From contig JAMOVU010000065.1 in the NCBI GenBank assembly GCA_027067555.1, positions 1 to 45,148 of the forward strand: a stretch of 45,148 bases of DNA. Direction: 5' to 3'. This document shows positions 39,664 to 44,036 of this stretch, piece after piece. Every line of letters begins with the position of its first letter. Positions within the stretch are counted from its first letter, which is position 1. The notes under the pieces are model-generated. The model worked only from the letters and a program-made list of their open reading frames with translations, was not told the DNA's origin and did no database searches. The DNA is from Candidatus Aminicenantota bacterium (GTDB lineage Bacteria; Acidobacteriota; Aminicenantia; JAMOAD01). The position numbers and the translations under genes were made by a program.

Positions 39664-39718
39664 GCACCTCTTGTATCTACACCATTGACAAACAACTAAT
39701 AACAAAATAAAAATTCCT

Positions 39719-39765
39719 CTTGACTTTTTACACAATATCTACGAGATATTGTGTAAAAAGTCAAG
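39719..39765. repeat. Perfect 22-bp inverted repeat spanning the proposed right end of the IS110 element
   Basis: Arms at 39719-39740 and 39744-39765 are fully complementary around the 3-base spacer ACG. Each arm contains a TTTTTACACAATATC segment or its complement. The proposed element end falls at the centre, so the outer arm belongs to the flank and the inner arm to the element. It could also act as a bidirectional terminator between the IS and the toxin-antitoxin module. Confidence 0.8.
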
Positions 39766-39802
39766 TGAAATATTTGGAAATATCAAGGAATATTTCAATA
39801 TA

Positions 39803-40795
39803 TCAAGCAGCGGAATAATTGTAATCCTCCCTGAAAAATGTCATATTTTTATAAAGAGCTCTGGTTATTAAAAGAGTTTTTCTCATTATAGCAACATAGG
39901 CAGCTTTTTTTGATTTTCCTTTACTAAGAAGTTTTTCATACATATCTTTGAATCTTCCATCTTTTCTTGAAAGCCTCATTGCTGACATAAAGAGTAGTTT
40001 TCTTACAAACTTATTTCCTCTTTTGCTTATCTTACTCTTTCTTTTCACACTTTTTCCCGAACTTGAATGCACAACATCAAGTCCAGAAAGTGATACTATC
40101 TGGCTTCTTGAAGCATTAGGATATCTCATAAAGAAAACCAACAATGCCATTGATATTACTTCACCTACACCATACATACTTCTTATGTATTCCCTTCTTC
40201 TTTTTAATTCTTTATCTTCATTTATTATGCTGTTTATATCTTTGAGTAATCTCCTTTTATTCTTTTCAAGATTTTTTATTACTCCTCTCATATCCTCTAT
40301 AACTTCTTTCTTCTCGGAGAGGTATTCTTTCATATGATTTAATCTGTTTTTCCAGTTTGTTATGTCCTTTTGTGTTTTCTCGTAAAGACTTACAAGTGTT
40401 TTTAATTTCTCAAGTCTTTCATCTAATCTTATCTCTTTTACTTCCTCAGGAAACACAAATACAAATTTTCTTAAATCCTCTGCATCTTTTTTATCATTTT
40501 TTCCTCTTGTTTTTTGTGATTTGAAAAAATGTGAGGCTCTGTAAGGATTAACTCTCACTACCTTTATTCCTTTTTTGCTACAAAACCTAAAAAGATGATA
40601 TGAGTATCCTCCTGTAGGCTCATAGCTTATTATTACTTTCTCATACTCTTCTCCAACTCTTCTTCTTATCAACCTATCAAGTTCTTTTAATCTTTTCTCA
40701 TTTCTTACTGTGTAATGCTCGTTCCCATCATAAACAGTTAAATACTCTTTTGATACATCAATTCCCAATACATAATATTCATTGAGATTTAACAT
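39803..40795 (-). CDS. IS110-family transposase (DEDD recombinase)
   Basis: The 330-residue protein has the IS110 layout. The N-terminal RuvC-like DEDD domain has D13 in GIDVSKE, E58 in YEPTGGYS and D100/D103 in GKNDKKDAEDL. A coiled-coil linker runs through about 125-200. The C-terminal Tnp_20 domain has the catalytic serine in the conserved GLDVVHSSSGK segment (Ser245 is the best candidate). Length and motifs are complete, with no frameshift. The ATG follows ATAGGAGGTG. The noncoding stretch upstream on the same strand carries the predicted guide RNA. Confidence 0.95.
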   Translation of the reverse strand: MLNLNEYYVLGIDVSKEYLTVYDGNEHYTVRNEKRLKELDRLIRRRVGEEYEKVIISYEPTGGYSYHLFRFCSKKGIKVVRVNPYRASHFFKSQKTRGKNDKKDAEDLRKFVFVFPEEVKEIRLDERLEKLKTLVSLYEKTQKDITNWKNRLNHMKEYLSEKKEVIEDMRGVIKNLEKNKRRLLKDINSIINEDKELKRRREYIRSMYGVGEVISMALLVFFMRYPNASRSQIVSLSGLDVVHSSSGKSVKRKSKISKRGNKFVRKLLFMSAMRLSRKDGRFKDMYEKLLSKGKSKKAAYVAIMRKTLLITRALYKNMTFFREDYNYSAA

Positions 40796-40824
40796 CTTTC
40801 ACCTCCTATTGTATAATTTAATTA

Positions 40825-41004
40825 TGAGATTGGAAGGAGGAGGATTATTACCCTGCATAACCTTTCCTTGTAGATACAGTCTGAAGAGGTTATCCTCTTC
40901 GACTATGATATTGTTGAGGATTGTGCAGGGAGGGAATGATCTCGCAGAGAAGCTGTCTTTTTTAAGACGCTTTCGTGGAAAAGATTCTCCTCCTCCAATC
41001 CTCA
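40825..41004 (-). ncRNA. Predicted IS110 bridge RNA with two guide-containing internal loops
   Basis: Read on the minus strand, a long outer stem pairs TGAGGATTGGAGGAGGA (41004-40988) with the complementary 40844-40825. Inside are two stem-loops. Loop 1 is capped by the hairpin at 40972-40950; its strands contain CTTTTCCAC (40983-40975) and TCTGCGAG (40948-40941). Loop 2 is closed by CCCTGCA/TGCAGGG (40930-40924 with 40857-40851) and capped by a strong hairpin (40903-40879); its strands contain ACAATATC (40914-40907) and TACAAGG (40872-40866). The order and about 180-nt size match the known IS621 bridge RNA (target loop first, donor loop second). Guide matches to the element ends are described in the findings. 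Confidence 0.7.
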
Positions 41005-41348
41005 TTTTTTTCTCTTTTTTATCCTTTTTTACCATTTTTTATTTTATTCATTTTCTCTTATTTTCTCCATTTTTCGCCGATTTACAGATATTTTTATAAA
41101 TAAAAATATTAATATATTAAGATACAAAGTGGAAAAAGGGACATTACACAGTGCGGTTGACAATAATAGAATTAAATTGGTTGACAATTAGGTTTATTAT
41201 AAATTCTTAGTACGCTGTTTTTATTACTCTCTTATAATTTAAAATCTCAAAATTATTGTTAAAATATCCACTAATGTTTTGTTATTAATTTTTTTATATT
41301 TTTATTTTCACAATAAATTGTTGACCTATTTTAGAACAAGACAGGAAC

Positions 41349-41476: not shown

Positions 41477-41671
41477 ATGAGTGAAGATAAAAATTTGCCC
41501 ATAGACAAAGAGCTTCTGGATATTCTTGCCTGCCCGGTATGTAAAACGGATGTTGTATTAACCGAAGATAAAAAGGGGCTCAGATGCGTTAAGTGCGGAA
41601 GGATTTATCCGATAAAAGACGGAATTCCTGTAATGTTAGTGGATGAGGCAACACCACCGACAAACAAATAA
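41477..41671 (+). CDS. Trm112/YcaR (UPF0434)-like zinc-ribbon protein
   Basis: The 64-residue protein has two CxxC pairs (C19/C22 in ACPVCK and C37/C40 in RCVKCG) followed by RIYPIKDGIPVMLVDEA, the standard sequence of the Trm112-like family. These small proteins bind zinc and often partner with methyltransferases; the bacterial role is not settled. A strong ribosome site precedes it, and it is the first gene of the transcript that runs into the glycosidase gene. Confidence 0.9.
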   Translation: MSEDKNLPIDKELLDILACPVCKTDVVLTEDKKGLRCVKCGRIYPIKDGIPVMLVDEATPPTNK

Positions 41672-41696
41672 TTATTTTTTCACGAAGAGGGATAAA

Positions 41697-44036
41697 ATGA
41701 AAAAAATATTATTAACCCTTAATCTGTTTTTATTTGTTTATTCCATTTTATTTTCATCTCAGCCTCAGGTTAAAAACCCATCACTTCAGGAAGAATTATC
41801 AAATCCGTTTTGCTTTTTTTTAGTCCCCTCAGATGAACTCGGGTTTAAAAATTCACCCAAAGGCAGTCAGATAACTTATGATGGAGCGATTTTCACAGGA
41901 CACGGAGAGCTTGATTTTTTCATTGGTCCCGACTTTAAACCTGTAAATCAGAGAATAAGAACACTTTACAGGAATTATATCCCTGTTTACACATACATTG
42001 AAAAATCAAACGGGATTACCTACACAATCAGGGAATTTGCCGCTCCCATTAACCTAAATCCTCTTAATATTCTCATTAATTTTATAGAAATAAAGGCTGA
42101 AAATAAAACAAAAAGTCCCCAAAAAGCCGGTGTGGGTTTCTCCTTTGTGTCAGGAAAAGGTAAATTCAGAAGATGCAAAAAAATTAATTATAGAAATTGG
42201 TATGAAAAAAAGTTTATGAAATCGGAAATTTACACCCAAAAAGAATTAAAAACAGAGTTTAGGATCAGGAAAGCTTACAAAAACAAACATTTTGTATTCT
42301 CTTATGGATACAATGGAGATGTCAAGGATTTTAAAATTTGGGCAGAGCAAAGGGCAAAGCTTAAAATAAGATTTTCATTCACTTTAAAACCAGATAAAAA
42401 AGAGAGCTTTATAATTAAAATGCCCTATGTCCCCATATATGAGGAAAGAGCAAAACTAATAAAGCAGGTAGTTGATAGCAATTATGCCTTATACTTGAAA
42501 GATATTATAAATTTCTGGGAAAGGGAGCTTTCAAAGGGTACTCAAATATTCATACCGGAGAAAAAGGTAAATGATACCATAAGAGCTGGATTTGCCTATC
42601 TTTTAATGGCAAGGGATACTATGGAAGACGGAAAAATTGAGCAGCATGTAAATCAATTTCAGTATGATTTTTTCTATCCCCGTGATGGTACTTACATGGC
42701 AAGAGTGTACAATATGTACAACAGACTTGATCTTGCAAAGGAAACAGTAAACAATTTTATAAAATATGATAAAAGAGGGGACCCAACATCTTTTGTTAAC
42801 AAATATCCCGATGATTGGGGCCAATCACTATGGGCAGTAGGCTCATACTTCAGAGCATCAAAAGATCTGAACTTTATTAAAAAGATTTATAAAATTATCC
42901 CAAACCACATAAATAGATTCATAAATTTTTGTAAAAAAGATCCCATAGGATTATGGCCCGTAGCAGGTCCCTATGATAATGAAGCGATAAACGGACATTA
43001 CACAGGCCATAGCTTCTGGGCTCTTTTGGGATTAAAAGATGCAATTTTCATAGCAAAAACCCTTAAAAAAGAAAATGATGCAAAATTTTTTGAAAAAATT
43101 TACAAGCAATATGAGAGCGTTTTCTTTAAAATATTAAATAACATAATTAAGAAAACCGGAGGTTATATCCCACCGGGGCTTGATAAACCAGAAGACGGAT
43201 ATGATTGGGCAAATGCCTCCGCAGGTGTTTATCCCTTTGAGATTTTATCTCCTTACGGGATAATTTCCGAAGCGACTACCTCTCTTTTAAGAAAGTACAA
43301 ATACAGAGAGGGAATTATGACCTATGGCCCCAATGCCTATACCTTAAAATTAGCTGAACTTAGCGGAAATAATCTTAAACCGGGATGGCTCCATCATTAT
43401 GAAACCTTTTATGTAACAGAAACTCTCCTTGCAATGGGAAAGCAGGAAGAGGTAATAGAGGATCTTTACTCAATCCTTGCCCATACTGGAAGTACAAACG
43501 ATGGTTTTGAGTTCTCAGTAAAACCGTGGAGTAATAGGGATACGGGGCACAATTTTCCTCCCCACGGCTGGTTTGCAGCAAGGTACAATGAACTCATAAG
43601 AAATATGCTATTAAGGGAATTCAAAAATGAGCTTCACCTTTTCTCCGCAATATCTCCCGAATGGGTAAAACCCGGAAATATTATAAAGGTGCAAAATGGT
43701 CTTACATATTTCGGGAAAATTTCAATGCAATATAAGATAAAAAAAGAGGGAGCAAAAATTGAGATAAAATCAGAATTCAATTCTCCGCCTGAGAAAATTC
43801 TATTCCACATCCCTTATTTTGCCAAAGTAAAAGAGATAAAAGTTGATGGTAAAAAAGTAAAAATAACAAATCTGAAGTATGACAGAGCTATTGTTCTTCA
43901 AAAAGTTCCCAAAATAATTGAAATCAGGTGGAAATTGCAAAAGACCAAAAAACTAAATTTCAAAACAGCTACAATTTCCCTTCTGAAAAAATACCATTCA
44001 AAGGATAAAAATTTTAATAAAAAATACCTTTTTTAA
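41697..44036 (+). CDS. Secreted GH15-like glycosidase (six-hairpin glycosidase fold)
   Basis: The start at 41697 has GAAGAGGG upstream and a signal peptide (residues 1-20, ending LFSSQ), giving 779 residues. The N-terminal part (about 25-260) is beta-rich like the supersandwich domain of glucoamylase-type enzymes. The helical catalytic part shows YDFFYPRDGTYMARVYNMY, DWGQSLWAVGSYFRA, GPYDNEAINGHYTGHSFWAL and FEFSVKPWSNRDTGHNFPPHGWFAARY. A short beta domain ends the protein. Candidate catalytic acids are the Glu in DNEAINGHY and an acidic residue in the C-terminal half, but I cannot fix them. It may act on alpha-glucans or related glycans in the periplasm. Confidence 0.7.
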   Translation: MKKILLTLNLFLFVYSILFSSQPQVKNPSLQEELSNPFCFFLVPSDELGFKNSPKGSQITYDGAIFTGHGELDFFIGPDFKPVNQRIRTLYRNYIPVYTYIEKSNGITYTIREFAAPINLNPLNILINFIEIKAENKTKSPQKAGVGFSFVSGKGKFRRCKKINYRNWYEKKFMKSEIYTQKELKTEFRIRKAYKNKHFVFSYGYNGDVKDFKIWAEQRAKLKIRFSFTLKPDKKESFIIKMPYVPIYEERAKLIKQVVDSNYALYLKDIINFWERELSKGTQIFIPEKKVNDTIRAGFAYLLMARDTMEDGKIEQHVNQFQYDFFYPRDGTYMARVYNMYNRLDLAKETVNNFIKYDKRGDPTSFVNKYPDDWGQSLWAVGSYFRASKDLNFIKKIYKIIPNHINRFINFCKKDPIGLWPVAGPYDNEAINGHYTGHSFWALLGLKDAIFIAKTLKKENDAKFFEKIYKQYESVFFKILNNIIKKTGGYIPPGLDKPEDGYDWANASAGVYPFEILSPYGIISEATTSLLRKYKYREGIMTYGPNAYTLKLAELSGNNLKPGWLHHYETFYVTETLLAMGKQEEVIEDLYSILAHTGSTNDGFEFSVKPWSNRDTGHNFPPHGWFAARYNELIRNMLLREFKNELHLFSAISPEWVKPGNIIKVQNGLTYFGKISMQYKIKKEGAKIEIKSEFNSPPEKILFHIPYFAKVKEIKVDGKKVKITNLKYDRAIVLQKVPKIIEIRWKLQKTKKLNFKTATISLLKKYHSKDKNFNKKYLF

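What the first reader, a model, noticed from the sequence alone, without database searches (positions are those of the whole stretch)
40825..41127. IS110 bridge RNA whose four loop guides match the element's own proposed ends
The left end of the element folds into two internal loops, and each loop strand has a short match to a flank with the polarity expected for a bridge RNA. All are read on the minus strand. (1) Loop 1, 5' strand TTTTCCAC (40982-40975) equals 41136-41129. (2) Loop 1, 3' strand TCTGCGAG (40948-40941) pairs with CTCGTAGA (39745-39738), one G-T wobble. (3) Loop 2, 5' strand ACAATATC (40914-40907) equals 39752-39745. (4) Loop 2, 3' strand TACAAGG (40872-40866) pairs with CTTTGTA (41129-41123), one G-T wobble. 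All four meet at a CT dinucleotide at both ends, giving a 1384-bp element. Loop 1 then acts as target loop and loop 2 as donor loop, in the known order. Stem, loops and matches are visible; the function is known for IS621 and inferred here.
Basis: partly seen in the sequence, partly recalled or inferred. Interest (0 to 1): 0.8.

Follow-up and report, generated by a model that had tools for sequence, protein, structure and literature searches.

The report
IS110 jumping gene with bridge RNA
This is an IS110-type jumping gene whose small guide ("bridge") RNA can be read directly from the sequence, and other copies in the same genome sit at sites that match that guide; it is a well-supported new member of a system described in 2024, not a new kind of system.

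Summary
All eight quoted strings are at the stated coordinates. The region folds far better than shuffles (z -5.96) into two internal loops, upstream of an IS110 recombinase related to IS621 (E 8.7e-21).

The same genome holds two more insertions of this element. Including the window copy, the three left flanks share TTTCCA and the right flanks read CGTAGA, CGCAGG and CTCAGG. They match the target guides at 12, 11 and 10 of 13 positions; 0 of 90,268 background positions reach 11.

A sister subfamily carries the same RNA with rewritten target guides: two copies differ at 8 of 16 guide positions but 2 of 168 others. Their right guides match that subfamily's right flanks, and donor guide and donor end co-vary (ACAATAT/ACAACAT).

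Two corrections: the donor left end is most likely CT-TGTATC (1383 bp, not 1384), and in the sister subfamily the left guide does not match the known left flanks, which is unexplained.

Bridge RNAs and their natural retargeting are published, so this is a new member of a known kind.

The parts
39744..41126 (-).
   Evidence: boundaries shared by other copies in the genome; extra left T assigned to the target at C171/C97 by frame and relatives
39803..40795 (-). IS110 recombinase gene, 330 aa
   Evidence: Pfam PF01548 and PF02371; IS621 8wt6 E 8.7e-21
40825..41004 (-). bridge RNA (structured part of the left end)
   Evidence: z -5.96; same stems in sister copies
40975..40982 (-). left target guide TTTTCCAC
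   Evidence: matches 7/7, 6/7, 6/7 non-core bases of three left flanks
40941..40948 (-). right target guide TCTGCGAG
   Evidence: pairs with right flanks CGTAGA, CGCAGG, CTCAGG at 5, 5 and 4 of 6 non-core bases, G-T pairs counted as mismatches
40907..40914 (-). left donor guide ACAATATC
   Evidence: equals right end 39752-39745; sister subfamily has ACAACATC in both places
40866..40872 (-). right donor guide TACAAGG
   Evidence: TACAAG pairs with left end CTTGTA
41129..41136 (-). left flank of the insertion site, TTTTCCAC
39738..39743 (-). right flank of the insertion site, CGTAGA (after core CT 39745-39744)
39759..39764 (-). -35-like TTGACT in the right end, half of the predicted circle-junction promoter
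   Evidence: TTGACT-17-TATCTT in the joined ends of both subfamilies; consensus match only
41119..41124 (-). -10-like TATCTT in the left end, other half of the predicted junction promoter
   Evidence: consensus match only

Best explanation
An IS110-group insertion sequence whose upstream non-coding end encodes a bridge RNA. The first internal loop pairs with the target (guides read TTTTCCA-CT-CGCAGA) and the second with the element's own joined ends (ACAATAT-CT-TGTATC). The recombinase excises the element as a circle, and the junction rebuilds a promoter (TTGACT-17-TATCTT) that drives the RNA. The RNA aligns circle and target at a 2-bp core, where conservative strand exchange inserts the element. 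Shown here: anatomy, guide matches at three sites, one empty site without net gain or loss of bases, rewritten target guides and donor co-variation in a sister subfamily. Inferred from IS621: transcription, RNA-protein complex, circle and strand exchange.
For: Coordinates and strings verified. Fold z -5.96. Protein is IS110 and aligns with IS621 and ISCro4 with DEDD residues and serine in place. Three sites in the genome match the target guides at 12, 11 and 10 of 13 positions against 0 of 90,268 background positions at 11 or more and 17 at 10 or more. Empty site TTTCCACTTCTCAGG supported by gene frame and two relatives. Sister copies differ in the target guides at 8/16 positions and at 2/168 elsewhere, Fisher 1.9e-8. 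Right guides fit the right flanks of their own subfamily at 5/6 (C139, C113, C10), 4/6 (C188) and 3/6 (C44), cross matches 0-3/6. Donor guide and right end change together, ACAATATC/ACAACATC. Junction promoter with 17-base spacer in both subfamilies.
Against: The left guides of the sister copies (TCTCGGG, TTCGAGG) do not match the left flanks of C43, C29, C39 or C190 (0-3 of 7). The loops of the C171 and C191 copies lie beyond their contig ends and are assumed to equal the window's. The core at C171/C97 seems to be TT in the target against CT in the donor. No RNA data.
Confidence: 0.94

Rival explanations
1. The structured left end is only a leader, attenuator or antisense regulator of the recombinase mRNA, and the flank matches are coincidence.
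For: Strong fold directly upstream of the gene; no RNA data show a separate transcript. A weak Rfam resemblance to an sRNA family (RF02937) is below its cut-off.
Against: The guide strings recur at two further independent insertion sites, and variation between sister copies is concentrated in the guides; a leader predicts neither.
Confidence: 0.03
2. The recombinase itself recognises a fixed target motif (TTTCCA-CT-CGCAGR) and the RNA copy of that motif has no guiding role.
For: The three sites of the window's subfamily share one motif, which protein recognition would also give.
Against: The motif is present in the RNA with the polarity and order of IS621 guides. The sister subfamily has other right flanks, and its RNA guides have changed to match them. 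The protein is an IS621 homologue.
Confidence: 0.02
3. Detail: the reader's version of the ends (donor CT-TTGTATC, 1384 bp) is the right one, and copies with CT-TGTATC have lost a T.
For: Window and C171 copies both read CCA-CT-TTGTATC, and the core would then be CT on both sides, as in IS621.
Against: C191 and all three sister-subfamily left ends read CT-TGTATC. At C171/C97 a two-base core leaves the interrupted gene out of frame; three bases (CTT) restore it and both relatives have three bases there. The guide pairs with CTTGTA without a wobble, and the junction promoter spacer is 17 rather than 18.
Confidence: 0.25

Closest known systems
IS621 bridge RNA and recombinase (PMC11208160, PMC11208158; PDB 8wt6)
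   Same: DEDD/Ser recombinase; RNA in the left end; target loop first, donor loop second; 5' strand of each loop equals the left half-site, 3' strand is the reverse complement of the right half-site; CT core; promoter rebuilt across the circle junction
   Different: Protein only remotely similar (phmmer E 8.7e-21); left end of about 330 bp with an A-rich stretch of about 120 bp before the structured RNA; other guides and target; one site with an apparent TT target core
ISEc21 and other IS110/IS1111 elements with seekRNA (PMC11187229)
   Same: Non-coding RNA upstream of the gene with matches to both target strands; natural reprogramming between related elements reported there
   Different: Two guide-divergent subfamilies coexist here in one genome; no experiments here
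ISCro4 recombinase (PDB 9t56)
   Same: Homologous IS110 recombinase (E 4.6e-20)
   Different: Its RNA was not compared here
IS1111 group
   Same: Same recombinase superfamily and RNA-guided targeting
   Different: IS1111 carries the RNA in the right end and has longer sub-terminal inverted repeats (PMC11208160); here the RNA is in the left end

Membership tests
IS110 group insertion sequence | Recombinase with DEDD RuvC-like domain (PF01548) and C-terminal domain with conserved serine (PF02371) | tested here: met
   both Pfam models above cut-off; alignment to IS621 places the DEDD residues and the serine
IS110 group insertion sequence | Long non-coding left end upstream of the gene (as opposed to IS1111, right end) | tested here: met
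   about 330 bp left of the gene, 59 bp right of it
IS110 group insertion sequence | Conservative insertion at a short core, no net gain or loss of bases | tested here: met
   empty site at C171/C97 reconstructed and in frame with two relatives; one site only
Bridge RNA | Structured RNA with two internal loops | tested here: met
   z -5.96 and loop positions; shared by sister copies
Bridge RNA | Target-loop guides match the insertion site on both sides with the IS621 polarity | tested here: met
   three sites in the window's subfamily; in the sister subfamily the right side is met, the left side is not
Bridge RNA | Donor-loop guides match the joined ends of the element | tested here: met
   ACAATATC and TACAAG against right and left end; co-variation with the sister subfamily
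Bridge RNA | Guides co-vary with target sites among relatives | tested here: inconclusive
   right target guide and left donor guide co-vary; left target guide of the sister subfamily does not fit; few relatives available
Bridge RNA | Promoter rebuilt across the circle junction | tested here: met
   TTGACT-17-TATCTT; consensus match only, 5 such matches in 90 kb of background
Bridge RNA | RNA is transcribed, bound by the recombinase and required for recombination | not testable with these tools
   needs RNA sequencing and an in vitro assay
Rfam RF02937 (Clostridiales-2) | Score at or above the gathering cut-off (58.6 bits) | tested here: not met
   19.1 bits

The most novel reading that the evidence does not exclude
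In the sister subfamily only the right half of the target loop constrains the site (right guides fit, left guides do not), and the core can shift by one base (target TT against donor CT): a relaxed, half-guided variant of bridge RNA targeting, possibly with RNAs of other copies acting in trans.
Probability: 0.1. Interest if true: 0.5.

Novelty: new member of a known kind. Interest (0 to 1): 0.27.

Why it matters
It gives an IS110 bridge RNA system, with no close relative found in the genomes and viral contigs searched, whose four guides, target motif and donor junction can be written down from genome data alone. A second lineage in the same genome shows target guides rewritten while the rest of the RNA stayed almost unchanged. 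It is a natural test case for guide evolution and for core and half-site tolerance; the principle itself is published.

Tried and rejected
(1) Relatives of the protein elsewhere: no match at E 1e-40 in 59 related genomes and only 28-33% identical proteins at looser cut-offs; one 28% relative (Sporomusa ovata) in genome contigs; none in viral contigs. Co-variation across many orthologues could therefore not be done. (2) Rfam: nothing at gathering score; a sub-threshold hit to RF02937 was followed into 142 genomes and dropped: no match over the cut-off, and the multi-copy weak matches in one genome are an unrelated palindromic repeat. (3) A 71-bp mini-element reading of 39670-39740 (+): one copy only in the genome (one search used a wrong pattern letter and is void), and part of it resembles a dispersed repeat, so not claimed. 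(4) Other registers, or other parts of the RNA, as an explanation of the left flanks in the sister subfamily: nothing above chance. (5) Left partners of C10, C188 and C44 and right partners of C29 and C39 were sought through relatives; only C190 (probable partner of C113) was found.

Full report
What was claimed and what is there. All eight strings are exactly where stated. The gene at 39803-40795 (-) encodes a 330-aa protein with both IS110-family Pfam domains. It aligns over almost its full length with the IS621 recombinase (8wt6, E 8.7e-21) and matches ISCro4 (9t56); in the IS621 alignment the DEDD residues and the serine fall on matching positions (the residue assignment is read from the printed alignment with known IS621 numbering). 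The 180-nt stretch 40825-41004 (-) folds at -66.8 kcal/mol, z -5.96, with the four guides in two internal loops.

Other copies in the genome. The genome (2.82 Mb, 202 contigs) holds more copies, most of them cut at contig ends by the repeat. Three insertions belong to the window's subfamily (right end TTGACTTTTTACACAATAT-CT). Homologous regions of two same-genus genomes pair the contigs into whole sites: C171 with C97, and C191 with C175. The left flanks are TTTTCCA (window), CTTTCCA (C171) and ATTTCCA (C191); the right flanks are CGTAGA (window), CTCAGG (C97) and CGCAGG (C175). Against the guides TTTTCCA and CGCAGA these score 12, 10 and 11 of 13, while none of 90,268 background positions reaches 11 and 17 reach 10. 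The boundaries used were fixed by the shared IS sequence, not by the guides. The loops of the C171 and C191 copies are not in the assembly; that they equal the window's loops is an assumption, based on 95-100% identity of the visible ends.

An empty site. C171/C97 interrupts a gene whose product looks like a penicillin acylase (this name is from recall, not tested). Joining the flanks with CTT gives an open frame (KPE-K-W) that fits the relatives (RPS-N-W, RPS-T-W). Joining them with CT shifts the frame, and both relatives have three bases there. So the target most likely read TTTCCACTTCTCAGG and no base was lost or gained, but the extra T of the left junction came from the target. C191 and three sister copies read CT-TGTATC, so the donor left end is most simply TGTATC, the element 1383 bp and the circle junction ACAATAT-CT-TGTATC. 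The right donor guide then pairs with CTTGTA without a wobble. The junction makes TTGACT-17-TATCTT, as expected of the promoter that IS110 circles rebuild (PMC11208160).

A sister subfamily with other guides. Copies ending in TTGACTTTTCAGACAACAT-CT carry the same RNA scaffold. The left donor guide changes from ACAATATC to ACAACATC together with the right end. The target guides of the C43 and C39 copies differ from each other at 8 of 16 positions, but at only 2 of 168 elsewhere in the RNA (Fisher 1.9e-8). The right guide of C43 predicts CT-TTAGGA; right flanks found are TTAGGC (C139, C113), TTGGGC (C188) and TTATAC (C44). The right guide of C39 predicts CT-GCTCGA; C10 has GCTCGG. Cross matches between loops and the flanks of other groups are 0-3 of 6. 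C43 pairs with C139 by synteny, and C190 probably with C113 (the C190 contig ends with CTTG, only the first four bases of the element).

What does not fit. The left guides of C43 (TCTCGGG) and C39 (TTCGAGG) do not match the left flanks of C43, C29, C39 or C190 (0-3 of 7). Shifting the register or searching the whole RNA gives nothing above chance. Possible reasons are chimeric contigs within the repeat, insertion directed in trans by the RNA of another copy, change of the loop after insertion, or truly relaxed left pairing. The data do not decide.

What is known. The two loops, guide polarity, core and junction promoter of IS110 bridge RNAs are described in PMC11208160. PMC11187229 describes the guide as seekRNA, places it upstream of the gene in IS110 types, and reports natural reprogramming between related elements. 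The element met the defining features that could be settled by sequence, except that guide-target co-variation is only partly shown. It is a new member of a known kind. Close relatives of its protein were not found in the genomes and contigs searched. Transcription, protein binding and activity are inferred.

Noticed in passing
window 39719-39740 (+), directly beside the element's right end: An inverted 22-bp copy of the right end (CTTGACTTTTTACACAATATCT) lies tail to tail with the element, 3 bp away, forming a 47-nt hairpin that scans as a terminator. It looks like a remnant of another copy; CTTGTATCT occurs about 40 bp upstream of it, but no second such 71-bp unit exists in the genome.
   Followed up: partly
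L107, L109, L110, left flank of C43 (L097), and window about 39674-39700 (+): A dispersed intergenic repeat (TGTAGAGCCGTAGC...GCTCTACACC..., with GCTT-rich ends such as AAGCTTTAAGCTTT) occurs several times in the genome. The C43/C139 insertion of the sister subfamily lies in or beside such sequence, and the window's right flank resembles part of it.
   Followed up: partly
L101 (G000:C10), the 116 bases before the right end: Only the last 40 or so bases before the right end match the element; upstream is unrelated sequence with an inverted repeat (CACCTCTGTGTGAAG). It may be a derivative that lacks the recombinase gene, or a nested insertion.
   Followed up: no
L108 (G000:C128), right-end-like ATGACTTTTCAGACAATATCT: A solo right-end-like sequence, intermediate between the two subfamilies, lies beside dispersed-repeat sequence without a recombinase gene seen next to it.
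   Followed up: no
window 41643-44036 against G001:C229 and G002:C89: In both same-genus genomes a homologue of this stretch lies beside the gene that the element interrupts at C171/C97; in this genome the two are on different contigs, which suggests a rearrangement between places that now carry copies of the element.
   Followed up: no
G009 loci L118, L126-L137: A related genome holds about 25 copies of a roughly 190-bp palindrome-rich repeat that weakly matches Rfam RF02937 (below its cut-off) and was not linked to IS110 in the one locus read.
   Followed up: partly
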